Origin: a virus
IMG/VR virus record: IMGVR_UViG_3300023109_000040
Location: 1-44,805 of that record
Direction: 5' to 3' (one strand)
Length of the DNA stretch: 44,805 nucleotides
Shown here: positions 13,866-27,849 of the stretch, in pieces
Layout: each line of letters begins with the position of its first letter
Position numbering within the stretch: the first letter of the stretch is position 1
Notes under the pieces: generated by a model
What the model was told of the DNA's origin: nothing
Database searches by the model: none
Seen by the model: the letters and a program-made list of their open reading frames with translations, nothing else
Position numbers and translations under genes: made by a program

Positions 13866-14201
13866 GTGAGGCATTCAGACAAGAAAATAATTATTGAATC
13901 TTTGGTAGATGTTCCTGCAAAAGGTAAAAGACCTTTCTGGGCAAGAGAAATCAAAACGCTCAATATTTTATTAGAAAAATATCCATCCAAATTATTCTGG
14001 AAAAACATTAGGTTTCCAGATAAAGTAGAAACATTAATTGTGTTTAGGTCAGGCTTCTATGCTAAAGAGCTTGAAAAAAAATACAAAAGGTTTCATTATA
14101 AAATCCCACAGAAGCAAACAATAGAACTTGGAGAGGTTTGTGGCGATAATATTTTAAATAAAAAATCTACAAAAACTATCAAATCATTCCTTTATGAGTA
14201 A
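13866..14201 (+). CDS. Hypothetical protein at head of recombination/replication operon
   Basis: This 111-residue basic protein is not one I recognise. It starts at GTG 13866 directly after a sigma70-like promoter. It is rich in Lys and aromatic residues (GKRPFWAREIKTLNILLEKYP, then FWKNIRFPDKVETLIVF), with alternating alpha/beta character and no membrane segment, enzyme motif or cysteine pairs. It overlaps the RecA-like gene by 8 bases, so the two are translated together. A DNA-binding or recombination-accessory role is plausible from its charge and position, but this is inference. Confidence 0.7.
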   Translation: MRHSDKKIIIESLVDVPAKGKRPFWAREIKTLNILLEKYPSKLFWKNIRFPDKVETLIVFRSGFYAKELEKKYKRFHYKIPQKQTIELGEVCGDNILNKKSTKTIKSFLYE

Positions 14202-15309
14202 AACGCAGGATTTATCAGGACAACAAGCTTTAAAAATATTTTTAAAACAAAACGAAGACCACCATTACAACTTCGAAAAAGAAGTAGATTACAAAGTTTC
14301 TTCTGGCAGTTTAAAGGTTGACTTTGAATTAGATGGGGGTCTAGGTCCAGGATTACATCGCTTTACGGGAATGAATGAAGGGGGCAAGAGCTCTGAAGCC
14401 TTAGAAGTAGCGAAAAATTTCCTCAAAATGCCTAACTCAAAAGCAGTTTATATAAAAGCTGAAGGCAGGCTTTCTAAAGAAATGAAGAAAAGGTGCGGTA
14501 TAAACTTTGTCACAGAAGAGAGTGACTGGGAACAAGGCACATGCTTCATCTTTGATTGTAATATATATGAAACCGTACTAGATCTAATGAGAGTTTTAGT
14601 CGCCAAAAACCCAGATGAAACAAAGTATTGTTTTGTCTTGGATTCCTTAGATGGCTTGATAATGAAGGATGACTTAGAAAAAGACTTTAAGGACGCTCAT
14701 AAGGTTGCAGGAGGAGCTTTATTGGGAGCTAAGTTCATGCAGAAAATGAGTATAGCTTTAGCTAAAAGAGGTCACATGGCTATTTTCATCTCGCAAGTTC
14801 GTGCGGATATTAAACTTGACCCCTACAGTAAAGCCCCTATAAGACAAACAACAGCGACGGGAGGTAATGCTTTACTACACTTTGCTAATTACATACTCGA
14901 GTTCGAGCCTAGATTCAAAAAAGATCTCATCTTAGAGAACCAAACTCAACCGATAGATCAACAAAAAAATAAAATACTTGGACACATAGCTAAAATGACG
15001 GTTAAGAAATCTCCAATTGAAAAAACCAATTATACCCTCGAGTACCCAATCAAGTATGGCAGAACTGATGGTAATTCTATATGGGTTGAGAGAGAAATCA
15101 TAGACATGCTTTATATGTGGGGCTACATCAATAGGAAAGGGGCCTGGATATCCTGCGAAGAAGATTTTATATCAACCTTAAAGCAAAATAAATTTGAGTT
15201 CCCAGACAAGATACAAGGAGAATCTAATCTAAACAAAGAACTAGAAGCTAACCCAGAGTTGGTTGATTTTTTAATTAAACATTTCAAAAACTTAATCTGT
15301 AAAGCATGA
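14194..15309 (+). CDS. RecA/UvsX-like recombinase
   Basis: This 371-residue protein is a RecA-fold ATPase expected to form filaments on ssDNA and promote strand exchange in phage recombination and recombination-dependent replication. The Walker A motif is G59-MNEGG-K65-S66 and Walker B is FVLD150. After them comes ISQVRADIKLDPY, matching the RecA NQIR/loop region, then TATGGNALLHFANYILEF, which matches the conserved GG-AL-FYAS region of RecA/UvsX. The glycine pattern of the P-loop (GMNEGGKS) is closer to UvsX-type proteins than to bacterial RecA (GPESSGKT). It overlaps both neighbours by 8 and 4 bases. I leave the gene symbol blank because uvsX and recA cannot be separated by eye. Confidence 0.88.
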   Translation: MSKTQDLSGQQALKIFLKQNEDHHYNFEKEVDYKVSSGSLKVDFELDGGLGPGLHRFTGMNEGGKSSEALEVAKNFLKMPNSKAVYIKAEGRLSKEMKKRCGINFVTEESDWEQGTCFIFDCNIYETVLDLMRVLVAKNPDETKYCFVLDSLDGLIMKDDLEKDFKDAHKVAGGALLGAKFMQKMSIALAKRGHMAIFISQVRADIKLDPYSKAPIRQTTATGGNALLHFANYILEFEPRFKKDLILENQTQPIDQQKNKILGHIAKMTVKKSPIEKTNYTLEYPIKYGRTDGNSIWVEREIIDMLYMWGYINRKGAWISCEEDFISTLKQNKFEFPDKIQGESNLNKELEANPELVDFLIKHFKNLICKA

Positions 15310-16008: not shown

Positions 16009-17511
16009 ATGCATTCATTTGAACTCGAACAGCAATTAATTGCTGGATTATTATCTCACCCTTCTTCTTACAGTCAGGTAGCTCCGTTTTTTTGCTCCAA
16101 CGATTTTGTCTCGGATATTAATAAAACCATTTACTCATTCCTTTCTAATAGTTATGAAAAGTCTGAGTCTTTGGATGCCTACGTTTTGGCGGAAAAAATA
16201 TCCTTGTCAGGAATATCTTTTGAGGATAACGTTGATATAGGCGACTACTTGCATGCTCTCACCTTGCGTAAATGCTCTGAAGCGAGCACTGTGTTAGCAG
16301 CTAAAGAAGTCAAGAAACTATCTATACGCAGAGAGATTCAGCAGGTGGGTGTAAAACTCTCATCCTCTATGGAGAAGATGAGTACTAATAAATCCTATAC
16401 GGATATTGTAAATACTGCTGATGAAATTTTCAATAAGACAATTAGTTCTTATGAAAACCAAGCAGATGCTCCAAAGAATATTTTCTCAGAAATGTCTGAG
16501 TTGATAGAAGAGAGAGGTAATAATCCAATAAAAGATTTTGGTCCAGTAGGTCCACATCCTAGGTTGCACCAAGTTTTAGGTTCACTACTTAGGCCTGGTA
16601 ATATTACAACCGTTGTAGCTCGCTCTGGTGTTGGAAAAACTCAATTCGTTATGGATTTCTGCACAAAAGTATCTTTAAAATATAAAATACCAGTCTTACA
16701 TTTAGATAACGGAGAAATGAGTAAAGAAGAACTTATCATGCGTCAGTGCTCTGCATTGTCTGGCGTACCAATTCGTCTTCTCGAAACTGGCCAATGGAGG
16801 CAAGCTGGTGATGAAGTGGTAACAAAGGTAAGAGATGTATGGAACCAAGTAAAAAACTATCAATTCTTCTATGAGAATGTGGGGGGGTTGCCAGTCGATG
16901 CGATGATACAAAAAGTTAAGCATTTCTATTTTTCTAACGTCGGTAGAGGCAACCCAATGATACTTAGCTTTGATTATATAAAAACCACATCAGAAAGTAT
17001 GCAGAATAAATCTGAGTGGCAAGTAGTGGGTGAAATGGTAGACAAACTCAAAAGATTAATACAAAAAGATTTGGTATTTGACGATAAGCCTGCATTAGCA
17101 TTAATAACCAGTGTACAAAGTAACAGAACAGGGATAACAAATAACAGGAGGTCAGATAGTTTAGTTGAAGATGAAAGTATTGTTTCTTTATCGGATAGAA
17201 TTACTCAGTTCAGTTCTCACTTATTAAGTTTAAGGCAAAAAACTACTGATGAGCTAGCTTCGGAAGAAGGTTTTGGAACCCATAAGTTAAGCTGGTTTAA
17301 ATGTAGGCACTTAGGTGAAGATGTGCATAGGGCTATGGTTCCAGTAAGAATGCACGACGGTGAATTAAAACGCAATTGCATTAATCTGGAAATCGCAAAT
17401 TTTGCGGTCAGTGAAGTTGGGGACTTGCAGGACATGGTTGATGCTCAAACAGCTGCGGAATTAAATGTTAATAACCCAGGTGGTACAGATTTATTCGACC
17501 CCGAACTTTAA
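16009..17511 (+). CDS. DnaB-type replicative helicase
   Basis: This 500-residue protein resembles bacterial DnaB, the hexameric helicase that unwinds DNA at the fork. Residues 1-100 match the DnaB N-terminal domain (SFELEQQLIAGLLSHPSSY, YLHALTLRK). The RecA-like ATPase domain has Walker A A204-RSGVG-K210-T211, then HLDNGEMSKEELIMRQC, matching the SLEMS helix of DnaB. A Walker B-like strand ILSFDYIK and the SLSDRITQFSSHLLSLRQK and WFKCRHLG segments follow. The primase gene starts on the A of its stop codon, so the two are translated together, as expected for a helicase-primase pair. Confidence 0.9.
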   Translation: MHSFELEQQLIAGLLSHPSSYSQVAPFFCSNDFVSDINKTIYSFLSNSYEKSESLDAYVLAEKISLSGISFEDNVDIGDYLHALTLRKCSEASTVLAAKEVKKLSIRREIQQVGVKLSSSMEKMSTNKSYTDIVNTADEIFNKTISSYENQADAPKNIFSEMSELIEERGNNPIKDFGPVGPHPRLHQVLGSLLRPGNITTVVARSGVGKTQFVMDFCTKVSLKYKIPVLHLDNGEMSKEELIMRQCSALSGVPIRLLETGQWRQAGDEVVTKVRDVWNQVKNYQFFYENVGGLPVDAMIQKVKHFYFSNVGRGNPMILSFDYIKTTSESMQNKSEWQVVGEMVDKLKRLIQKDLVFDDKPALALITSVQSNRTGITNNRRSDSLVEDESIVSLSDRITQFSSHLLSLRQKTTDELASEEGFGTHKLSWFKCRHLGEDVHRAMVPVRMHDGELKRNCINLEIANFAVSEVGDLQDMVDAQTAAELNVNNPGGTDLFDPEL

Positions 17512-18545
17512 TGAATCAAGAAGTTATTAAATCAAGCCTTACGAAAATGGGCTACTCTTTGCAGGATTGCGGTAACCACTGGAGGACTAACGCTTTGTAC
17601 AGGGGAGGCAGTAACCCTACAGCTTTAATGATTTATAAAGATACTGGGGTTTGGACAGATTTTGTCAAGAACACCCCTAGGATGCCTTTTAAAGACTTGG
17701 TTTGTGCAACAATCAAAACCACAGACGAAAGTCAGATTAGTGAATTTTTAGAAAATCTTTCTACTCAACCTGTACAACAACAGAAACCTAAAATGTCTTC
17801 TGAAAAAATATACGACAAATCCATTCTGCAAAAATTAATGCCTCACTATATTTTTTATACCAACAAGGGGGTTAGTGAAGATGTTTTAGTTAATTTAAAA
17901 GGGGGGCTCGCTACAGAGGGGGCTATGTATCAAAGGTTTGTCTTCCCGATTTACAATGAAACTGGTCAGATACATGGTTTCAGTGGAAGGGATATGAATA
18001 GTAAATCCTCTAATAGGCCCAAATGGAAACATGTCGGCAAAAAAACCAATTGGGTATACCCAGCTTTTGTTCCTGTTGATGGTGAAAATATATTCCTAAA
18101 TTCAATCAAAGAAAACAGATGTATATATCTAGTTGAAAGCATAGGAGATGTACTATCACTTCATTCGGCAGGTATATATAATGCCATATGCACTTTTGGC
18201 ACATCTATATCTTCAAAAGTTCTATGTTTTTTATTAAGCATTGATGCTGAATGTATTCACATTTGCCTCAACAATGATGAAGGAAAAGAAAAAAATAGAG
18301 GCAAAATAGGATCTCTAGGAGTTTACTGCAAGCTTTTGAATTATTTCTCTCGATCAAGGATAGCTATTAACCCTCCAACCCTTAATGATTTCGGAGACAT
18401 GAACGAAGATCAGATAGAAGTCTGGTCATCAAACCTTTTTGAGCCAGGCTCAAACCTAGAACAAATAGATAGTGATATAAAATCTTACAATGAATCTGGT
18501 GATATATCTAAATCCTCCTACCAATCATTCAAAAAACACATTTAA
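17511..18545 (+). CDS. DnaG-type primase with degenerate zinc domain
   Basis: This 344-residue protein has a DnaG layout. Residues 1-65 match the CHC2 zinc-binding domain in shape, but the zinc cysteines and histidine are absent: CPFH is replaced by ALYR, and the CFxCG turn is a WTDFVKN-type segment. A linker and a core (VFPIYNETGQIHGFSGRDM) follow, with a TOPRIM fold: E209 and D213 in LVESIGDVLS, and the second acidic motif as NND256-E257-GKEKNRG in place of DxD. It should make RNA primers for the helicase-coupled fork, if the catalytic metal site is still functional. It overlaps the helicase and the next gene by one base each (TAATG). Confidence 0.85.
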   Translation: MNQEVIKSSLTKMGYSLQDCGNHWRTNALYRGGSNPTALMIYKDTGVWTDFVKNTPRMPFKDLVCATIKTTDESQISEFLENLSTQPVQQQKPKMSSEKIYDKSILQKLMPHYIFYTNKGVSEDVLVNLKGGLATEGAMYQRFVFPIYNETGQIHGFSGRDMNSKSSNRPKWKHVGKKTNWVYPAFVPVDGENIFLNSIKENRCIYLVESIGDVLSLHSAGIYNAICTFGTSISSKVLCFLLSIDAECIHICLNNDEGKEKNRGKIGSLGVYCKLLNYFSRSRIAINPPTLNDFGDMNEDQIEVWSSNLFEPGSNLEQIDSDIKSYNESGDISKSSYQSFKKHI

Positions 18546-19615
18546 TGAAAAAAGAACTCACCCCACTATCAGCTAGTAAAATTAAAAAAGCCCAAAGTTG
18601 CTCTTGGAGTTATTGGGCTACATACCATTTAAAAGTTCCAGACAAAAGTAATGATGGCGCAAGCAGGGGCTGGATATGCCACTTAATCTTTGAGTTATTG
18701 GGGGAAGAGAAACACAAAAAAATATATGACGAAATCATTCTTAAAGATTCTATATTTGCGTGCGCCCCAATTAAAAGGCTAGTTCAGTATCATGCTAAAA
18801 AATTAAATGTAAACGATGTAGACAATTTAAAAATGATTGACGACATGACTCTTGCGGGCCTACACTTTGATTTCTTTGGGGATAATCATAACGGGACACC
18901 CGACCAAGCTATATCTGAGCAATCTTTTGATATCACCGTTGATGAAGCAGGAAAACTTTACCGACTTAGAGGTTTTATTGATAAATTATTCCTGTATAAA
19001 GAAAAAAGCACCGCTATCATCAGGGACTTTAAGAGTAGTAAGCAAATTTTTAAAGGTAAAGAAGTCACAGATAATCTACAAGATTTTCTTTATACTCTCG
19101 CTGTTAAAAAAATGTTTCCTAATTTCACTAAACGTCAAGTTGAGTTCTTGTTTTTAAAGTTTGATTTAAATTCGAATGGAAATTTGAAAATGAAAAATTT
19201 ATCAGACGAAGAGCTGGAGGGGGTAGAGCTCCACTTAACCGACATACAATCCTTCTTAGATACCTTTGATGAGCAAGACGCAGTAGCTAACTTTGCTGGG
19301 TCACAAGGTTATCCTCAAGACGGAACCTTTGGCGGTCCATTAATGTGCGGGAAGGATGGTTATAAAATATCTAAAGGTAGTCCTCTTTTAGATAAAAACG
19401 GTGAGCCTATTGTGGCGTATATATGTTCTTACAGGAAGCCGTTAACTTATTATGTTATCAAAAATGAATCTGGTAAAATTATCAAGTCAGTCTTTAAAGA
19501 AGCTAAAAATATACTTACACCTGACGAATCTAAAGGGGAATATGTGGAAAAAATGGAATATAAAGGCTGCCCTTATTGGAATAAACCTGCTGTAGAAATT
19601 GATGATTTTTTGTAA
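18545..19615 (+). CDS. Cas4/RecB-like PD-(D/E)XK exonuclease
   Basis: This 356-residue protein opens with LSASKIKKAQSCSWSYW, the SxSxxxxxxxCP-type start of the PDDEXK_1 (Cas4/AddB/RecB nuclease) family. H46 (GWICH), D146 (FIDK), D161-F-K163 (RDFKSSK) and Q-x-x-x-Y (LQDFLYTL) complete the RecB-type active site. Cysteines C19, C268, C294 and C342 (GCPYW) could hold an Fe-S cluster as in Cas4/AddB, though their spacing is not the standard one. Known relatives are 5'-3' or dual-polarity DNA exonucleases. In this operon it probably processes ends for the recombinase at 14194, or it may degrade host DNA. There is no CRISPR array in the window. Confidence 0.85.
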   Translation: MKKELTPLSASKIKKAQSCSWSYWATYHLKVPDKSNDGASRGWICHLIFELLGEEKHKKIYDEIILKDSIFACAPIKRLVQYHAKKLNVNDVDNLKMIDDMTLAGLHFDFFGDNHNGTPDQAISEQSFDITVDEAGKLYRLRGFIDKLFLYKEKSTAIIRDFKSSKQIFKGKEVTDNLQDFLYTLAVKKMFPNFTKRQVEFLFLKFDLNSNGNLKMKNLSDEELEGVELHLTDIQSFLDTFDEQDAVANFAGSQGYPQDGTFGGPLMCGKDGYKISKGSPLLDKNGEPIVAYICSYRKPLTYYVIKNESGKIIKSVFKEAKNILTPDESKGEYVEKMEYKGCPYWNKPAVEIDDFL

Positions 19616-19898: not shown

Positions 19899-21053
19899 AT
19901 GTTTTTTGCAGGGCTAGTTTTTGTTTCTGCCGTGTCTATTTCTTTGACGGCAGCTTATTTTAGTGTTATAGGTTTGGCTACTATGTTTCCAGGCTCAAGG
20001 GAAGCTATCATCATTATGGGTGGGGTACTGGAGATTGGAAAACTTATTGCTTCCGTATGGCTGCACCATAATTGGAATAATGCATTTAAGTTCCTTAAAC
20101 GCTATCTTTTATTTTCTGTTGTTGTTTTAAGTTTGATAACCAGTATGGGTATTTTTGGCTTCCTATCAAGATCCCACGTGGAGCACCATGCATCTATGGA
20201 AAAAGAACAAGCAATCATTCAGCAGATAGATGGTAAAATCAATAGAGAATTAAAATTTATAGAAAGAAAAGAGTTAGAGTTTAAATCCTTAAATCAATCC
20301 ATGCAGTCCGCTCAAGAAAATTCAAGCGATACTGTGGCGGTATTAGAGTCTAGGGTTGAATTATTAAAAGAAGAAAAGTCTTCCTCTATATCCGTGCAAG
20401 AGAAAATTATAACAAATATATCAGGAAGGCTCTTAGAGTTAGAGTTAGAATTAAAAAACGCAAAACCAAGCGGTCTTTTTGGGAGTCAAAAAAAATACGA
20501 CCAACTAGTCGATGCTCAAAAAAAAGAAAAAGAAAGCTTAGCTTCGCAGCGCTTATCTATTGAGCAAGAAATTCAATCCATTTCTTCAAGTTTTGATGAT
20601 AAAATAAAAGACTCAAGAGATAAAATTGATACCATTTTAATAGGCACCTCCACTACTCCAAAAGAAACAGGTACCCCAAGGACTGTCATAGAAGAAGCTT
20701 ACGACAGAATAGATGTCATGGAGTCAGAAAAATTTGAGTATGGATCCAAATTAAGAGCTCTAGAAGTAGAGATAGGACCAATCTTATATATAGCTAACAT
20801 GTTAAACGAATGGGGAGGCATGTCTATTGACACCAATCAAGCTATCCGCGTAGTTATAATAACTCTTATATTCGTATTTGATCCTCTAGCCATCCTACTT
20901 CTTATAGCAGCTACGATGACTTTCGCAGCCCACAAGAAGGAAGAGCTACCACCAGATGTAAAAGCTATTAGGAATAAATTATTAGAAGAGTTACAGGAGT
21001 ACATAGACGAGGGTGGTTTGGCCGACCACTTTATTGAGAGAGCTAAAAAATAG
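19899..21053 (+). CDS. Four-TM membrane protein with long coiled coil
   Basis: The product is 384 residues. Three hydrophobic helices lie at about 2-27, 34-55 and 66-92. A charged heptad-like coiled coil runs over about 95-305 (EKEQAIIQQIDGKINREL, then KLRALEVEIG). A fourth TM helix at about 317-343 (VVIITLIFVFDPLAILLLIA) and a charged tail follow. The coiled coil lies between TM3 and TM4, so it should sit on one face of the inner membrane. I do not recognise a named family; similar membrane/coiled-coil proteins occur in large marine phages with no known function. It lies between the nuclease-hypothetical pair and the polymerase genes. A role as membrane anchor for replication or as an infection-compartment scaffold is inference only. 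Confidence 0.75.
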   Translation: MFFAGLVFVSAVSISLTAAYFSVIGLATMFPGSREAIIIMGGVLEIGKLIASVWLHHNWNNAFKFLKRYLLFSVVVLSLITSMGIFGFLSRSHVEHHASMEKEQAIIQQIDGKINRELKFIERKELEFKSLNQSMQSAQENSSDTVAVLESRVELLKEEKSSSISVQEKIITNISGRLLELELELKNAKPSGLFGSQKKYDQLVDAQKKEKESLASQRLSIEQEIQSISSSFDDKIKDSRDKIDTILIGTSTTPKETGTPRTVIEEAYDRIDVMESEKFEYGSKLRALEVEIGPILYIANMLNEWGGMSIDTNQAIRVVIITLIFVFDPLAILLLIAATMTFAAHKKEELPPDVKAIRNKLLEELQEYIDEGGLADHFIERAKK

Positions 21054-21092: not shown

Positions 21093-21851
21093 ATGACACC
21101 ACTATTCAAAAGCCACTATTCTATTGGTAAATCTATCTTAACATTAAACGAACCTTCGGAGCCGAATGGTTCCTCAGATTCTGTATTTGATATAGTTAAA
21201 GAAAACAATCTTACAGAAGTAGTAATGGTTGAAGATAGCTTTATGGGTTTCCTTCAAGCCAACAAAGTAGCCAAGGCTATGGATGTTAATTTTAGATTCG
21301 GTTTAAGGATAGATATAGTGGACGAATCTTTTGACCCAGAAGACAAAAAAATCCCGAAACACAAGTTAATTGTATTCAGCAAGAACTCCGAAGGGTGCAA
21401 GTGTTTATTTAAAATTTATAGTAAAGTAAAGTCGGACGACATAAACGCCATCACCTTAACCGACTTGGCTTCGTATTGGGACTCAGACCATCTAGATTTA
21501 GCTGTCCCATTTTATGATTCTTTTTTATTTTGTAATTTATTTTTATTTAATTCATTTGTTGTGGATCTATCTAGTTTTAGTCCCCATTTCTTTCTGGAAG
21601 ACAATGGTTTACCCTTTGATTTTATGTTGGAAAATAATATTAAAAACTATACATTGAATCATTCTTACCTAACCCATAAAACTAAATCTATTTTTTATAA
21701 AAATCGTGAAGATTTCGAAGCATTCTTAACATATAAACTTATATGCTCCAGGAGCTCTTTTGCGTCCAGGAAAAGCTCTCTAGAAAAACCTAACTTAGAC
21801 CACATGGGTAGTAAAGAATTTTGCTATGAGAGTCTCTTAGAACAATCCTAA
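21093..21851 (+). CDS. DNA polymerase III alpha, separate PHP-like N-terminal domain
   Basis: This 252-residue protein corresponds to the N-terminal PHP region of bacterial DnaE but stands alone. The order of segments matches: a start strand ending YS (LFKSHYSIG), then SVFDIVKENNLTEVVMVEDSF where DnaE has the A-x-TDHGN turn, MGFLQANKVAKAMDVNFRFGLRIDI where DnaE has the GIxPIxGxE strand, and a C-terminal end (LDHMGSKEFCYESLLE) like the DnaE YYLKSxEEM link to the palm. The metal-binding residues of an active PHP site are gone: the HxH at the start is replaced (K6, H8), and TDH is V46-E47-D48. It is probably a structural half that reassembles with the catalytic piece at 22847, with proofreading left to the exonuclease at 22025. 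Confidence 0.72.
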   Translation: MTPLFKSHYSIGKSILTLNEPSEPNGSSDSVFDIVKENNLTEVVMVEDSFMGFLQANKVAKAMDVNFRFGLRIDIVDESFDPEDKKIPKHKLIVFSKNSEGCKCLFKIYSKVKSDDINAITLTDLASYWDSDHLDLAVPFYDSFLFCNLFLFNSFVVDLSSFSPHFFLEDNGLPFDFMLENNIKNYTLNHSYLTHKTKSIFYKNREDFEAFLTYKLICSRSSFASRKSSLEKPNLDHMGSKEFCYESLLEQS

Positions 21852-21861
21852 ATATAAAATT

Positions 21862-22032
21862 ATGAACTCCAGTACTGTTAAAAAAATAAAATCTATCATA
21901 AATTATGACAGCTCTATACCAGAACACAAAAGAATGCTTAAAGCATTAAAGAGGCAGTATAACTCCTTGCCTAGTAACGAAAAGCATGCTTTAATTAATA
22001 ATTTAAAAAACCTCTCAAGTGATAATGGATAA
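21862..22032 (+). CDS. Small hypothetical protein, 56 aa, between polymerase pieces
   Basis: An ATG at 21862, 10 bases after the PHP-domain gene, opens a 56-residue basic helical ORF (MNSSTVKKIKSIINYDSS, then MLKALKRQYNSLPSNEKH). It overlaps the start of the exonuclease gene, as expected in a tight phage operon. It fills what would otherwise be a 170-base gap, which supports it being real. Helical, lysine-rich and without a motif, it could be an adaptor for the split polymerase, but this is a guess. Confidence 0.5.
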   Translation: MNSSTVKKIKSIINYDSSIPEHKRMLKALKRQYNSLPSNEKHALINNLKNLSSDNG

Positions 22033-22666
22033 CGAACTTTTAAGGTTTAAAAAAGATCAAAAATATCTCATCTTTGATTTCGAAACCTGTAATCTTAATT
22101 TGGCATCAGAAGATAACAAGCCCTGGCAGTTAGCATTCATTATTGCCGAAGGGACAAAGGTTATTTCTAAGCATGATTATTATATAAAATGGGACGACTT
22201 AAAAATATCCAAAGACGCAGAAAAGATTACTGGTTTTTCTAGAAAAGTATATAATGCTAGAGGTGAAGACCCCTCTTTTATCTTAGACCACTTTGAAACC
22301 TACTTGTATAATCCAGAGTACATAAACTTGGGGCACAATATATTTGGTTTTGATATATATATACATAACATATTCAGGCAGTGCTTGGGCAGGAAGACTG
22401 ACTACAGTTATCTTAAAAGATCTATTGATACATTATCAATCGGCAAAGCTATACAAAAAGAAATACCATATAACAAAAAAGAAGATTTATCCGTTTTTCA
22501 ATTAAAATTAAATTCCTTTAGGGAGAGAGGTATGAGTTTAAACCTAGCCTCTTGTTGTAAAAAGTACGATATAAGTTTTGATCCCGCAAAACTACATGAC
22601 GCACTTTATGATATAACTAAGAATTTTGAAGTTTTTAATAAAATGATTTGGAATATTTCAATATGA
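22025..22666 (+). CDS. DnaQ-like DEDDh 3'-5' exonuclease
   Basis: This 213-residue exonuclease carries the three Exo motifs of the DEDDh family: Exo I D18-F-E20 (IFDFET), Exo II D110 (GHNIFGFD) and Exo III H191-D192...D196 (LHDALYD), with the five metal and catalytic residues in place. It is the likely proofreading subunit (epsilon equivalent) for the split polymerase III genes on both sides. The start is ATG 22025; a GTG at 22019 adds two residues. It overlaps the 56-aa ORF before it, and the gene after it starts at the overlapping ATGA (22663). A Cas4-like nuclease is elsewhere, so this one is specifically linked to the polymerase. Confidence 0.88.
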   Translation: MDNELLRFKKDQKYLIFDFETCNLNLASEDNKPWQLAFIIAEGTKVISKHDYYIKWDDLKISKDAEKITGFSRKVYNARGEDPSFILDHFETYLYNPEYINLGHNIFGFDIYIHNIFRQCLGRKTDYSYLKRSIDTLSIGKAIQKEIPYNKKEDLSVFQLKLNSFRERGMSLNLASCCKKYDISFDPAKLHDALYDITKNFEVFNKMIWNISI

Positions 22667-22854
22667 ATAATACTATTACATACCAATACTTAAAAGACAC
22701 ATTACTCAAGAACAAAGCCAATCAACACTTAGCTGATCTAATTGAATTTTTCCTATCACAGCCTCCAGAATATTGGAACACAAGACCAGATGAAGTATAT
22801 GCCGTCTATACAGATTTACTTGAAATAGAAAACACCTTACAGAGTAATGTTTGA
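22663..22854 (+). CDS. Small hypothetical protein, 63 aa, coupled to polymerase
   Basis: The gene starts at ATG 22663, which overlaps the exonuclease stop as ATGA, and ends 8 bases inside the catalytic polymerase gene. The product is 63 residues, acidic and helical (YQYLKDTLLKNKANQHLADLIEFFL, then PDEVYAVYTDLLEIE). No domain is recognised. The coupling at both ends suggests it is made in step with the polymerase and exonuclease, so a small accessory subunit is possible, but no sequence evidence shows binding. An in-frame TTG at 22648 is a less likely start. Confidence 0.6.
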   Translation: MNNTITYQYLKDTLLKNKANQHLADLIEFFLSQPPEYWNTRPDEVYAVYTDLLEIENTLQSNV

Positions 22855-25423
22855 TTCTTACACAAGCTATGAAGAATGCATCCCTGCAGGAGTGCTCCTT
22901 CCTACTATCAACATCTCTAAAGAACAGTACGAGTCTGTTGGCTTGAAGGACGGGGCATCTAATTTCATGTTTCTAAAAAAGATTTGTGAATCTGGGGCCA
23001 AACTAAAAGGAATTGATTTACTAAAAGATAAACTTGGGTACAGGGACAGACTATCTAGCGAGCTATCAATTTTAAAAAGATTAGGGTTCATAGATTATAT
23101 ATTATTAAATTGGGATATATTAAATTTTTGCCATGAAAACGACATACCTACTGGGCCAGGTCGTGGTTCTGCCGCTGGTTCTCTAGTTTTATTCTTCATT
23201 GGCGTTACAAAGATCGATCCAATCAAGTATGACTTATTTTTTGAGAGGTTTGTGAGTGAGAGTCGAGCAAAAAAGATTAAGAAAGATGGAGTAACATATC
23301 TTGATGGAAGTTTGCTGGCTGATATTGATAATGATATTTCTTATGAACATAGGGACAGGGTTGTTTCTTACATAGAAAATCGTTACCCCAATAGAACTGC
23401 TAAAATTCTAACATTGAATACCCTCAGCAGTAAACTCTGCATTAGGGAGTGCGGAAAAATAGTAGGTAATTTTATAGAGCAAGATATAAATCATATTACA
23501 TCATTTATACCTAAGAATTTTGGGAAGGTAGCATCTATAGATAAATCCTTAGAGGAGAGTACTAAATTTAAAGAGTGGTCTGAAGATAACACGAGGGTGG
23601 TAGATATTTCAAGGAAGCTCGAGGGTTTAAACAAAAACTCAGGAGTTCACCCGTCTGGCATAGCTATTTCCTGCGATGCAATCGAAGAGATATGCCCCGT
23701 TCAAAAAACTAATGACGGCTCTCTTGTTACTGGCTACGATATGAATTGGGTGTCAGAACTTATGGTTAAGTTTGATATTCTTGGGTTGCGTACATTAAGT
23801 GTGATTTACAACACCTGCAACTCAATAGGCATTGACCCAACAGAGATACCTCTGGATGAAGATAAGACTTATTATCCCTTCTCCGAACTAGATTCTCCAC
23901 ATGGTTTATTTCAAATAGAGGCTCATACTAATTTCTCTGTTTGCAGAAAAGTAAAACCCAGAAGTCTTGAAGAGCTTAGTGCTGTTATAGCCTTAGCTAG
24001 GCCAGGGGCATTAGATTTTGTGGATAAGTATTCTGACTATATTAGGTCTGGAGATGCTCAGGTAGTTCATAATTTCTTCGAAGAGGAGCTTTCGTATACT
24101 GGGGGTATACCATTATACCAAGAGCAGTTAATGAAGATGGCAGTAAGATTAGGATTCACCCTTGACGAGTCAGAGCAATTAAGAAGAATTGTAGGCAAGA
24201 AAAAGGTAGACAAAATGCCAGAGTGGAAAAGTAAGATCGAAGGCAAAATACAAGAACAAAATCTCGAAGAGGCTATTGGTGATATTTTATGGAAGGTGGC
24301 TGAAGATAGTGCGAACTATTCATTTAACAAAAGCCACTCTATCAGTTATGCTACATTAGCGGCATGGACCGTTTATTTAAAATTCAATCACCCAAAAGAG
24401 TTCTTTCTTGCGTTATTAAAAATGACAAACTTTGAGCCAAACCCACAGCTTGAAGTCTCTAATATAAGCAAAGAGCTACCAAATTTTGATATAAAACTAT
24501 TACCACCAAATTTAGTTAAGTCTGATTTTGATTATTGTGTCGAAGAGGGAAACATAAGGTATGGCTTGTCTAGTATAAAGGGCATAAGCGATAAAACTTT
24601 ACATGCTATACAGTTGTTTAAGGAAGAAAAGTTTGTTAATAAATTTGAAGTATTCATAGCAGCCAAGCATTCTGGCCTCAATATAGGCACATTATCATCC
24701 TTAATACAGGCGGGTGCTCTTAGTGATTCTCAAAACGAAGATAGAGCGAAACAAGTACTAGAGGCTCAATTATTTAATATCCTTACCGACAGAGAAAAAA
24801 GAAATTTCATATCAATACATGAGAAAGAAGATAAAGATGTGTTTGAGATATTTAATTCAGCAAAAACTTCTGGTTTTAAATACTCAGGGGACGACGGTAA
24901 GCCATTAATTAAAGAATCCAGATATGAAACTATTAAGAAAAAATACTTACCACAAAAAGAAATATACTACAAAAACAGTAAGAATCAAAAATTTGCTAAC
25001 TGGTACTTCGAGCGCAGCTTACTTGGGTTCAGTTACTCAACTAGATTAAAAGATGTATTTCGTAGTTCCCACTCGGAGTTAAAGGACTCTAAGTTTTTTA
25101 AAGAGTGCGAAGCTGGTACTGTTGCTAAATATTTGTTGGTCGTTAAATTTGCAAAAAAAGAAAAATCCAGAAACGGTAATCTTTACATCAAACTAGAACT
25201 CGAAGATGAGGTCGGTAATGTCGATGGTATATTAGTGGATACAGCTAGGTTTAAAAAATGCACAGAATATCTAAAGGACAATAAGGTTCCTGCAGAAGGG
25301 AATATAGTTGTTGTTTATGGGGAAAAAAATAGGTCTGGAGACGCATTATTTTTAAATCGAATAAGGATCATTGATGAAATGATTTACATGAAACTTTCCG
25401 ACTTTAAGAACGATTCTGTGTAA
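22847..25423 (+). CDS. DNA polymerase III alpha, catalytic part (C family)
   Basis: This 858-residue protein holds the palm-fingers and later domains of DnaE without the PHP region. It begins with LLPTINIS, the segment following PHP in DnaE. GPGRGSAAGS (103-112) and the palm acidic triad D159-I-D161 (ADIDND) with D310 (KFDILGLRTL) are present, as are HPSGIAIS, ARPGALD, EQLMKMAVRLGF and FNKSHSISYA, all hallmark C-family segments. C-terminal helix-hairpin-helix (SIKGISDKT) and an OB-like region (AKYLLVVKFAKKEK) follow. It would carry out processive replication with the PHP part at 21093 and the exonuclease at 22025. Full DnaE is about 1160 residues, so the two halves add up to 1110. Confidence 0.92.
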   Translation: MFDSYTSYEECIPAGVLLPTINISKEQYESVGLKDGASNFMFLKKICESGAKLKGIDLLKDKLGYRDRLSSELSILKRLGFIDYILLNWDILNFCHENDIPTGPGRGSAAGSLVLFFIGVTKIDPIKYDLFFERFVSESRAKKIKKDGVTYLDGSLLADIDNDISYEHRDRVVSYIENRYPNRTAKILTLNTLSSKLCIRECGKIVGNFIEQDINHITSFIPKNFGKVASIDKSLEESTKFKEWSEDNTRVVDISRKLEGLNKNSGVHPSGIAISCDAIEEICPVQKTNDGSLVTGYDMNWVSELMVKFDILGLRTLSVIYNTCNSIGIDPTEIPLDEDKTYYPFSELDSPHGLFQIEAHTNFSVCRKVKPRSLEELSAVIALARPGALDFVDKYSDYIRSGDAQVVHNFFEEELSYTGGIPLYQEQLMKMAVRLGFTLDESEQLRRIVGKKKVDKMPEWKSKIEGKIQEQNLEEAIGDILWKVAEDSANYSFNKSHSISYATLAAWTVYLKFNHPKEFFLALLKMTNFEPNPQLEVSNISKELPNFDIKLLPPNLVKSDFDYCVEEGNIRYGLSSIKGISDKTLHAIQLFKEEKFVNKFEVFIAAKHSGLNIGTLSSLIQAGALSDSQNEDRAKQVLEAQLFNILTDREKRNFISIHEKEDKDVFEIFNSAKTSGFKYSGDDGKPLIKESRYETIKKKYLPQKEIYYKNSKNQKFANWYFERSLLGFSYSTRLKDVFRSSHSELKDSKFFKECEAGTVAKYLLVVKFAKKEKSRNGNLYIKLELEDEVGNVDGILVDTARFKKCTEYLKDNKVPAEGNIVVVYGEKNRSGDALFLNRIRIIDEMIYMKLSDFKNDSV

Positions 25424-25434: not shown

Positions 25435-27849
25435 ATGTCACAAGGCCCAAACTTTTCACCAAAGTCCCAGTATTTTATAACCAAATCTAAAGAACTTGCA
25501 TTTTCTCTTGGTCATTTGTCTGTGAGAGAAGAGCATTTGTTAATTCTTTTATTAGAATCTGAAGATGATTTTATAGATCTATTCTTACGTAAACAAAAAA
25601 TATCTAAAAATGAATTCGTATCTTTTGTAACAACCTTTGGCTCCCTGAACAAGAAGGGGGAATCAGACCTTAGTCTTACAGATGTCGCGTATAATGATGA
25701 TTTTAAAACTGCCTTAAACGAAGCCCATAAGCTTTCTGAGAAGTGCCAAGACCATTACATAGGTGCAGAACACTTATTTTTTGCCTTATTAAATAGGAAA
25801 GGAGGGGTAGGTTGTATGTTCCTAACCTCCATAGATAAAGAGCCAAACAAGGTCATGTTAGACTTCTTGAATTTATTGAAATTTAAAAATCTTACATTTG
25901 ATATTCCTGGCAACCAAGGCAACCCAGGCAGTTTCCCTAAAACTCCAACAGAGATTCCTAGCAATACTGAAGGTAGCAGTCTAGAAAATTTCTGCGTTAA
26001 TTTAAATGAAATGTCATCGAAGGGCAAGATTGATAAAGTTATAGGTCGTGACTCTGAAGTTAATAGAATTTTCCAAATTCTAGGCAGAAAAAATAAAAAC
26101 AATCCCATTTTAATTGGTGACCCTGGCGTAGGTAAAACGGCGTGTGTGGAGGGTCTAGCTAGTCTAATTATGGCTAAACGTTGTCCATCCTTCTTGCATA
26201 ATTTTGAAGTTTATGCTGTTGATATAGCCTCAATGGTTGCTGGTACTAAATACAGAGGTCAATTCGAGCAAAGATTAAAAAACTTAATTTCAGAGGTTTC
26301 TGATTGTAATATCATTTTATTTATCGACGAAGCTCACACCTTAATTGGTGCGGGGAGTGCGGAGGGGGCGTTGGATGCTGCTAACATATTAAAGCCAGCT
26401 CTCGCTAGGGGTCAAATTAAACTAATCACCGCCACCACATATCCAGAGTATAAAAAAAGCATAGAAAAAGATATGGCTTTAAACAGAAGGCTTGAACCCG
26501 TGTTCGTTGATGAACCCAACAAAAGCGAGTGCCTAGAAATACTTAATGGAATTAAAAAATCATACGAAAAATTCCATGATGTAAAATACTCCAAAACATG
26601 CTTGAAGAAAATTGTAGATTTGGCTGAAGAGTTTTTGCCAACTAAATATTTTCCTGACAAAGCTATCGACTTAATGGATGAGGCTGGCTCTTGCTTAAAA
26701 ATATCTAACCTAACCGAACCTTCCTCTTTATCTAAAATAGAATCCCAGCTCTACGATTTAAGCTACGAGCCTGAAACTGATGCTAAATTAGAGGAAAGCT
26801 TACTGGATAGATACGAAGATGAATACAAAAAATGGGAAAAATCTATAGACAGAACTATATCAATAGACCTGATTGAATCTATAGTGGCTAAAAAAACAAA
26901 GGTACCAGTAGATCATATCAACAAATCATCTTCGTTTAATTTAAATAATTTAAAACGTTCCCTAAAATCTCAAGTTATAGGCCAACCATCTGCTATTGAT
27001 TCCATAGTGGATAGTATAGGTAGGTCAAAATTAGGCATTAAGGATAGCCATAAACCAATATCTTCATTTCTGTTTTTAGGCTTAACAGGTACTGGTAAAA
27101 CTTATACTGGCAAAGTTTTAGCTGAAAAGTTTTTCGGGGATTCTAAAAAAGTTGTCAGACTAGATATGTCTGAGTACTCTGAAAAAATATCCTCATCAAA
27201 GCTTATAGGCTCTTCTCCTGGTTATGTGGGTTATGAAGAGGGGGGATTCTTAATAGAGAAAGTTAAAAAAACCCCACACTGTGTTTTAATTTTTGATGAA
27301 ATAGAGAAAGCTCATAGAGATGTCCAGCAATTATTATTACAAATCCTAGAGGAAGGTGAGATAGAAGATCAGTTTGGCGGCAAAGCATATTTTAAAGATT
27401 GCGTTATTATATTAACTAGTAATATAGGTGCTCACCTACTAACTAAAACCAGTCTTGGATTTGGCCAGTCAAATAATACAAAAGAAGAAGAAGTCAGAGG
27501 GGAAGCTATAAAATTGTTAAGCCCAGAACTTTGCAATAGGCTTGATGAGATTATTCTATTCGAGAATTTACCGCAAGAATCTTTTGTTAAAATATTAAAT
27601 GGCAAAATCTCTTCCCTAAAAAAGAAACTCAAAAAAAGAGATATATCCCTATCCTTAGATCAAGATTCAGCACAATATATATGTGAATTAGCAAGAAAAG
27701 AAAACATGGGAGCTAGGCCGCTAGACAGAATAATTAAGAAAAATATAGAGTCTCCACTATCTTCTTATGTTTTAAATAAAAATATAAATACATCTATAAA
27801 TTTTGATTTCTACCTATCTAATTCTGAAATAAAATTTAAAGTATCATAA
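25435..27849 (+). CDS. ClpA/ClpC-type AAA+ unfoldase
   Basis: This 804-residue Hsp100 protein has two ATPase domains. Residues about 5-150 resemble the Clp N-terminal repeat domain. AAA-1 has Walker A GDPGVGKT (228-235) and Walker B ILFIDEAH (D298-E299). The middle region is short, as in ClpA/ClpC rather than ClpB. AAA-2 has Walker A GLTGTGKT (about 549-556), Walker B IFDEIEKAH (about 620), the sensor SNIGAHLL and the C-terminal GARPLDRIIKK. Between them lies SLGFGQ (673-678), placed where the ClpP-binding IGF/LGF loop lies in ClpA and ClpC. This suggests that it can feed a ClpP protease, phage or host. No clpP is in the window. It could degrade host factors or remodel virion assembly; the role is not shown. 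Confidence 0.93.
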   Translation: MSQGPNFSPKSQYFITKSKELAFSLGHLSVREEHLLILLLESEDDFIDLFLRKQKISKNEFVSFVTTFGSLNKKGESDLSLTDVAYNDDFKTALNEAHKLSEKCQDHYIGAEHLFFALLNRKGGVGCMFLTSIDKEPNKVMLDFLNLLKFKNLTFDIPGNQGNPGSFPKTPTEIPSNTEGSSLENFCVNLNEMSSKGKIDKVIGRDSEVNRIFQILGRKNKNNPILIGDPGVGKTACVEGLASLIMAKRCPSFLHNFEVYAVDIASMVAGTKYRGQFEQRLKNLISEVSDCNIILFIDEAHTLIGAGSAEGALDAANILKPALARGQIKLITATTYPEYKKSIEKDMALNRRLEPVFVDEPNKSECLEILNGIKKSYEKFHDVKYSKTCLKKIVDLAEEFLPTKYFPDKAIDLMDEAGSCLKISNLTEPSSLSKIESQLYDLSYEPETDAKLEESLLDRYEDEYKKWEKSIDRTISIDLIESIVAKKTKVPVDHINKSSSFNLNNLKRSLKSQVIGQPSAIDSIVDSIGRSKLGIKDSHKPISSFLFLGLTGTGKTYTGKVLAEKFFGDSKKVVRLDMSEYSEKISSSKLIGSSPGYVGYEEGGFLIEKVKKTPHCVLIFDEIEKAHRDVQQLLLQILEEGEIEDQFGGKAYFKDCVIILTSNIGAHLLTKTSLGFGQSNNTKEEEVRGEAIKLLSPELCNRLDEIILFENLPQESFVKILNGKISSLKKKLKKRDISLSLDQDSAQYICELARKENMGARPLDRIIKKNIESPLSSYVLNKNINTSINFDFYLSNSEIKFKVS

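What the first reader, a model, noticed from the sequence alone, without database searches (positions are those of the whole stretch)
21093..25423. Polymerase III alpha split into PHP and catalytic genes with an exonuclease gene between them
The DnaE-like PHP domain is a gene of its own (21093), followed by a 56-aa ORF (21862), a DEDDh exonuclease (22025), a 63-aa ORF (22663) and the palm/fingers gene (22847), tightly packed and with no second promoter evident. The two polymerase parts add up to 1110 residues, near full DnaE length. It looks like a phage replicase built from separate polypeptides, including its own proofreader.
Basis: partly seen in the sequence, partly recalled or inferred. 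Interest (0 to 1): 0.78.

Follow-up and report, generated by a model that had tools for sequence, protein, structure and literature searches.

The report
Phage DNA polymerase split into subunits
A large family of uncultivated phages copies its DNA with a bacterial-type replicase (DNA polymerase III alpha) whose normally built-in PHP domain is a separate protein encoded just before the phage's own proofreading exonuclease, a natural exception to the rule that PHP is always part of this polymerase.

Summary
The window encodes, in order, an inactivated DnaE-type PHP domain as its own gene (21093-21851), a 56-aa ORF, a DEDDh exonuclease with all catalytic residues (22025-22666), a 63-aa ORF, and a family C polymerase that starts at the palm (22847-25423). 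The order PHP, exonuclease, polymerase occurs in 110 of 110 distinct IMG/VR loci that hold all three, down to 30-40% identity. No ORF matches two of the three. The two small ORFs are variable; the three large genes are the core. Assembly error, pseudogene, intron and intein joining are excluded or very unlikely. Twelve relatives' contigs (108-211 kb) carry no other recognised polymerase. AlphaFold gives the PHP gene a DnaE-PHP fold, and a read-through chain aligns to whole DnaE across PHP plus polymerase, consistent with docking in the usual place. The closest cultured phages have one-chain DnaE. Best explanation: a replicase of separate PHP, proofreader and polymerase polypeptides, PHP being a non-catalytic scaffold. 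The nearest published precedent is a differently split, PHP-less minimal Pol III of some jumbo phages. Physical association is untested, and no sliding clamp or clamp-binding motif was found.

The parts
21093..21851 (+). Separate PHP protein (252 aa), DnaE-type PHP domain with metal-binding site lost
21862..22032 (+). s1: 56-aa helical ORF, real (dN/dS 0.055 vs L001) but present only in a subset of relatives, sometimes elsewhere in the locus
22025..22666 (+). DEDDh 3'-5' exonuclease (213 aa), catalytic D18 E20 D110 H191 D196 invariant in 51 relatives; start lies inside s1; no epsilon-like C-terminal tail
22663..22854 (+). s2: 63-aa ORF (ATGA overlap with the exonuclease stop), found only in close relatives
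22847..25423 (+). Family C polymerase without PHP (858 aa): palm, thumb, fingers, HhH, probable OB; D159, D161, D310 invariant
25435..27849 (+). ClpA/ClpB-type AAA+ protein, next gene downstream in most relatives
16009..17511 (+). DnaB-type replicative helicase, same replication block
17511..18545 (+). Toprim primase
18545..19615 (+). PD-(D/E)XK nuclease
14194..15309 (+). UvsX-like recombinase

Best explanation
This is the replicase operon of a large tailed phage whose DNA polymerase III alpha is made as two chains. The palm-thumb-fingers-HhH-OB chain does synthesis. The PHP chain has lost its metal site and serves as a non-catalytic scaffold that sits where PHP sits in DnaE and links the polymerase to the phage's own DEDDh exonuclease, which proofreads. 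Shown: the genes, their order, their conservation, the intact polymerase and exonuclease active sites, the lost PHP active site, the PHP fold (predicted). Inferred: that the three assemble, that PHP docks canonically, that the exonuclease proofreads this polymerase, and that this is the phage's main replicase (no other recognised polymerase in 12 large relatives).
For: Order PHP-exo-pol in 110/110 distinct loci, no fusion in 173. Exo and pol overlap or abut within 15 nt in 92/110 loci, 59 by exactly 19 nt, suggesting coupled translation. Strong purifying selection on all three. DEDDh and polymerase aspartates invariant. PHP family has no invariant histidine, so the HHDHEH[C/H]DH metal motif described for active PHP (PMC12926913) is lost. 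PHP-alone model matches DnaE PHP, TM up to 0.75 of query. Read-through PHP-linker-pol model aligns to DnaE over both parts. One family C polymerase and no PolA/PolB in 12/12 contigs. In E. coli the isolated PHP fragment 1-270 is well behaved and keeps full exonuclease binding (PMC3642679). The family is one clade with full support, apart from all bacterial and isolate-phage DnaE sampled.
Against: No direct evidence of a complex; AlphaFold knows DnaE, and the chain was artificially tethered by an out-of-frame linker, with no negative control. TM-scores are moderate with rmsd 7.6-11 A, so exact docking is unsettled. The exonuclease lacks the epsilon tail that wraps PHP in E. coli, so its attachment must differ. 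No clamp gene and no conserved Q-type clamp-binding motif after the HhH region, so processivity is unexplained. In one relative (L069) the polymerase lies 4.4 kb from PHP-exo.
Confidence: 0.72

Rival explanations
1. The PHP protein has left the polymerase: it is now an accessory or regulatory protein (for example binding only the exonuclease or another partner) and the polymerase works without any PHP.
For: PHP is the least conserved of the three (30-53% identity, versus 38-70% for pol); it lies over 700 nt from the exonuclease in 24/110 loci; its catalytic site is lost.
Against: Never absent where the locus is complete; always upstream on the same strand; fold closest to DnaE PHP, not to other PHP phosphoesterases; read-through model consistent with DnaE-like docking.
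Confidence: 0.17
2. The polymerase is a repair or accessory enzyme and the host replicase copies the phage genome.
For: No sliding clamp or clamp-binding motif found.
Against: Sits in a block with helicase, primase and UvsX; is the only recognised polymerase in 12 contigs of 108-211 kb; carried with its own exonuclease.
Confidence: 0.07
3. The two parts are rejoined after expression, by split intein, intron splicing or recoding.
For: Relatives do carry intein-like and split-intein-like inserts inside the polymerase gene at a different site.
Against: The PHP gene ends and the polymerase gene begins at normal domain borders without recognisable intein sequence; no Rfam intron match; the interval holds a conserved exonuclease gene and reaches several kb in some relatives.
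Confidence: 0.02
4. Assembly error, frameshift or decaying gene.
For: None found.
Against: Independent contigs from many samples show the same split; dN/dS 0.01-0.05.
Confidence: 0.01

Closest known systems
Bacterial DnaE (Pol III alpha) with DnaQ/epsilon
   Same: Same polymerase fold, catalytic aspartates, PHP fold, DEDDh proofreader
   Different: PHP is on the polymerase chain in DnaE; here it is a separate gene. The exonuclease lacks the epsilon tail and is encoded between the two alpha parts.
One-chain DnaE of cultured phages (Annadreamy, Hydra, Finch, Stormageddon, Sundance, MA9V-3, MTATph1)
   Same: Phage-encoded family C polymerase, about 26-33% identical
   Different: All are single genes of about 1063-1185 codons including PHP.
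Split minimal Pol III alpha of group 2.2 jumbo phages (Iyer et al. 2021, PMC7824862)
   Same: A phage Pol III alpha encoded as separate proteins
   Different: That one is split inside the catalytic region into distantly located genes, has no other Pol III domain such as PHP, and coexists with a family B polymerase; here the break is at the PHP/palm border and no family B polymerase was found.
PolC of Gram-positive bacteria
   Same: PHP, exonuclease and polymerase in one functional unit; the exonuclease profile's best PDB match is a PolC exonuclease
   Different: PolC is one chain with the exonuclease inside PHP (family knowledge); here three genes, and the polymerase is DnaE-like.
Intein-split DnaE of cyanobacteria
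   Same: DnaE encoded in two genes
   Different: Split by an intein and rejoined by trans-splicing (PMC3919608, and family knowledge); no intein at this break.

Membership tests
Family C DNA polymerase, DnaE type | DNA_pol3_alpha, finger and HhH domains | tested here: met
   E 3e-60, 1.7e-31, 4e-14; profile to Taq DnaE E 3e-121
Family C DNA polymerase, DnaE type | Three catalytic aspartates | tested here: met
   D159, D161, D310 invariant in 45 relatives; first two align with the DnaE PDIDTD motif, third lies in the conserved KxDxLGLRT segment
Family C DNA polymerase, DnaE type | N-terminal PHP domain on the same polypeptide (called universal in PMC12926913) | tested here: not met
   0 of 173 loci fused; so it is filed as a split variant, not a standard DnaE
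Active PHP exonuclease | HHDHEH[C/H]DH metal ligands | tested here: not met
   No invariant histidine in 56 PHP proteins
Family C DNA polymerase, DnaE type | Internal clamp-binding motif after HhH | tested here: inconclusive
   No conserved Q-type motif there; other motifs possible
DnaQ/epsilon proofreader | DEDDh active site | tested here: met
   D18 E20 D110 H191 D196 invariant in 51
DnaQ/epsilon proofreader | C-terminal tail that wraps PHP | tested here: not met
   213 aa, exonuclease domain reaches residue 204; E. coli tail from PMC3642679
Split minimal Pol III of group 2.2 jumbo phages | No PHP, split within catalytic region, family B polymerase present | tested here: not met
   PHP present, catalytic chain whole, no DNA_pol_B in 12 contigs; definition
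Intein-split DnaE | Intein halves at the break | tested here: not met
   Products begin and end at domain borders
Pol III core complex | Physical alpha-PHP-exonuclease association | not testable with these tools
   Only a tethered single-chain prediction was possible

The most novel reading that the evidence does not exclude
The split reflects an old, pre-fusion form of Pol III: PHP and exonuclease began as separate accessory subunits, and bacterial DnaE and PolC arose by fusing them. The family lies on its own long, fully supported branch outside all bacterial and isolate-phage DnaE sampled, which does not exclude this; secondary gene fission is the simpler reading.
Probability: 0.1. Interest if true: 0.88.

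Novelty: new variant of a known kind. Interest (0 to 1): 0.62.

Why it matters
Why bacterial replicases keep a PHP domain that is often catalytically dead is an open question. Here nature has separated it: a family of phages keeps an inactivated PHP as an obligate separate protein beside the proofreader. That makes PHP's scaffold role directly testable by leaving it out of a reconstituted enzyme, gives a polymerase chain that naturally lacks PHP, and adds a three-gene replicase module to the known phage replication systems.

Tried and rejected
Looked for a fused PHP-pol ORF in all relatives: none. Three bacterial loci seemed to lack PHP on the chain away from a contig edge (L136, L153, L161); tblastn found PHP directly upstream, so likely frameshifts. 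Alicyclobacillus phage KKP_3916 looked like a separate PHP gene, but PHP there is attached to the start of the palm and the rest of DnaE is in further pieces. Rossellomorea phage phiT1 is split inside the catalytic region. A first mixed PHP/pol alignment was misaligned and discarded. Phage PaBG, suggested by the tail sheath, uses a family A polymerase. Intron search negative. Clamp searches negative. Promoter scan uninformative. Two NCBIfam calls failed on my coordinates and were not needed.

Full report
What is there. The window is a 44.8-kb fragment of a tailed-phage genome held as a virus record, with ribonucleotide reductase, UvsX, DnaB-type helicase, Toprim primase, a PD-(D/E)XK nuclease, a tail sheath and tail proteins. 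The reported ORFs are present at the stated places. The polymerase gene has the family C palm/thumb, finger and HhH domains and a weak OB match; its profile matches Taq DnaE from residue 383 and E. coli DnaE from residue 313, i.e. it begins after PHP. The exonuclease is RNase_T/DnaQ-like.

The PHP assignment. This copy is weak in Pfam (E 0.018) but 39 of 56 relatives match Pfam PHP, the best at 9e-13. The family profile aligns residues 50-242 with Taq DnaE 49-250. AlphaFold of the window PHP on 56 relatives gives pLDDT 91 and pTM 0.89; the twenty best PDB matches are all DnaE or PolC, followed only then by other PHP phosphoesterases. The family has no invariant histidine, so the metal-binding motif is gone.

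Conservation. Four scans of IMG/VR gave loci sharing 30-98% identity. Of 110 loci distinct by protein sequence, all have PHP, exonuclease, polymerase in that order and on one strand; PHP and exo overlap or abut within 15 nt in 60, exo and pol in 92, with a 19-nt overlap in 59. No ORF matches two of the three profiles in 173 loci. Loci with only one or two of the three are cut by contig ends, as judged from their coordinates. The last scan reported 510 relatives, of which 80 were kept. The two small ORFs vary: s1 was found in 18 fetched loci and sometimes lies downstream of the Clp gene, s2 only in close relatives. Against near relative L001, dN/dS is 0.047 PHP, 0.055 s1, 0.010 exo, 0.14 s2, 0.034 pol.

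Comparators. Tblastn of the window PHP found nothing in 50,697 phage records, and the annotated or inspected hits of a divergent family PHP were DnaE genes, whole or fragmented. Seven cultured phages with close polymerases have single DnaE genes of about 1063-1185 codons. In bacterial and phage comparator loci the ORF extends a median of 260 residues upstream of the polymerase start; the short cases are contig edges or have PHP directly upstream in another frame. In a tree of 61 polymerases the split family is one side of a branch with SH-aLRT 100; the program warns that long branches meet, so its placement relative to other phages is unsure.

Assembly test. In some relatives PHP and polymerase share a frame, so the locus DNA read through stops, with the out-of-frame exonuclease region as a 200-residue linker, gave one chain (A5). 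AlphaFold gave pTM 0.68 with the linker disordered. The polymerase part is 740 of 1194 residues, so about 0.62 would be the ceiling if PHP and linker were unplaced; PHP therefore appears to be placed at least partly. Foldseek aligns the chain to DnaE over 1157-1208 columns, TM 0.72 by target for 2hnh and 5lew, but rmsd 7.6-11 A. This is consistent with, not proof of, canonical docking; AlphaFold has seen DnaE and the chain is tethered.

Mechanism. In E. coli the exonuclease binds the PHP domain, and residues 1-270 alone suffice (PMC3642679). By analogy the phage PHP protein is a scaffold between polymerase and proofreader. The phage exonuclease lacks the epsilon tail, so contacts must differ. 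No DnaN or gp45-type clamp was found in 12 large contigs, nor a conserved Q-type clamp motif; records may be incomplete. These contigs have exactly one family C polymerase and no family A or B polymerase, so the module is probably the replicase.

Known context. [quoted passage not shown] A 2021 survey describes a PHP-less minimal Pol III split within its catalytic part in group 2.2 jumbo phages alongside a family B polymerase (PMC7824862). I found no report of a separate PHP gene, though only open-licence papers were searchable. I therefore call it a new variant of a known kind.

Limits. The host is unknown, and the habitat is not given by the tools. All structure claims are predictions. The membership of the small ORFs s1 and s2 in the complex is not supported by their patchy distribution.

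Noticed in passing
L244, L248, L252, L261 (pol ORFs from about 6.4-6.7 kb): The polymerase gene is broken again at the conserved FN|KSHS site, with extra residues on both halves and a free-standing endonuclease-like ORF between: looks like a split-intein 'fractured gene'; in L252 the endonuclease is truncated.
   Followed up: partly
L075 / L076, 5935-9416: Intein-like insert at the same site (ends HNFYANGIVVSNS), with two overlapping ORFs.
   Followed up: partly
window 25435-27849 and most relatives: A ClpA/ClpB-type AAA+ gene directly follows the polymerase in most of the family; why it is tied to the replicase is unknown.
   Followed up: no
12 contigs behind L001, L005, L020, L028, L034, L039, L069, L072, L073, L075, L094, L095: No DnaN or gp45-type sliding clamp found beside a family C polymerase.
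   Followed up: partly
L019 5233-6000, L253: About 250 residues of unknown type fused in front of the polymerase.
   Followed up: no
L110: A 35-kb contig in a MAG labelled Lokiarchaeota carries the same three genes (58% identity); probably a mis-binned phage contig, but the host is open.
   Followed up: no
L106 (OQ846916) and L107 (PV767480): Alicyclobacillus phage KKP_3916 has DnaE in at least four pieces, Rossellomorea phage phiT1 in two: other, independent breaks of phage DnaE.
   Followed up: partly
window 19899-21053: Membrane/coiled-coil-like protein (384 aa) just upstream of PHP, conserved in a subset of relatives.
   Followed up: no
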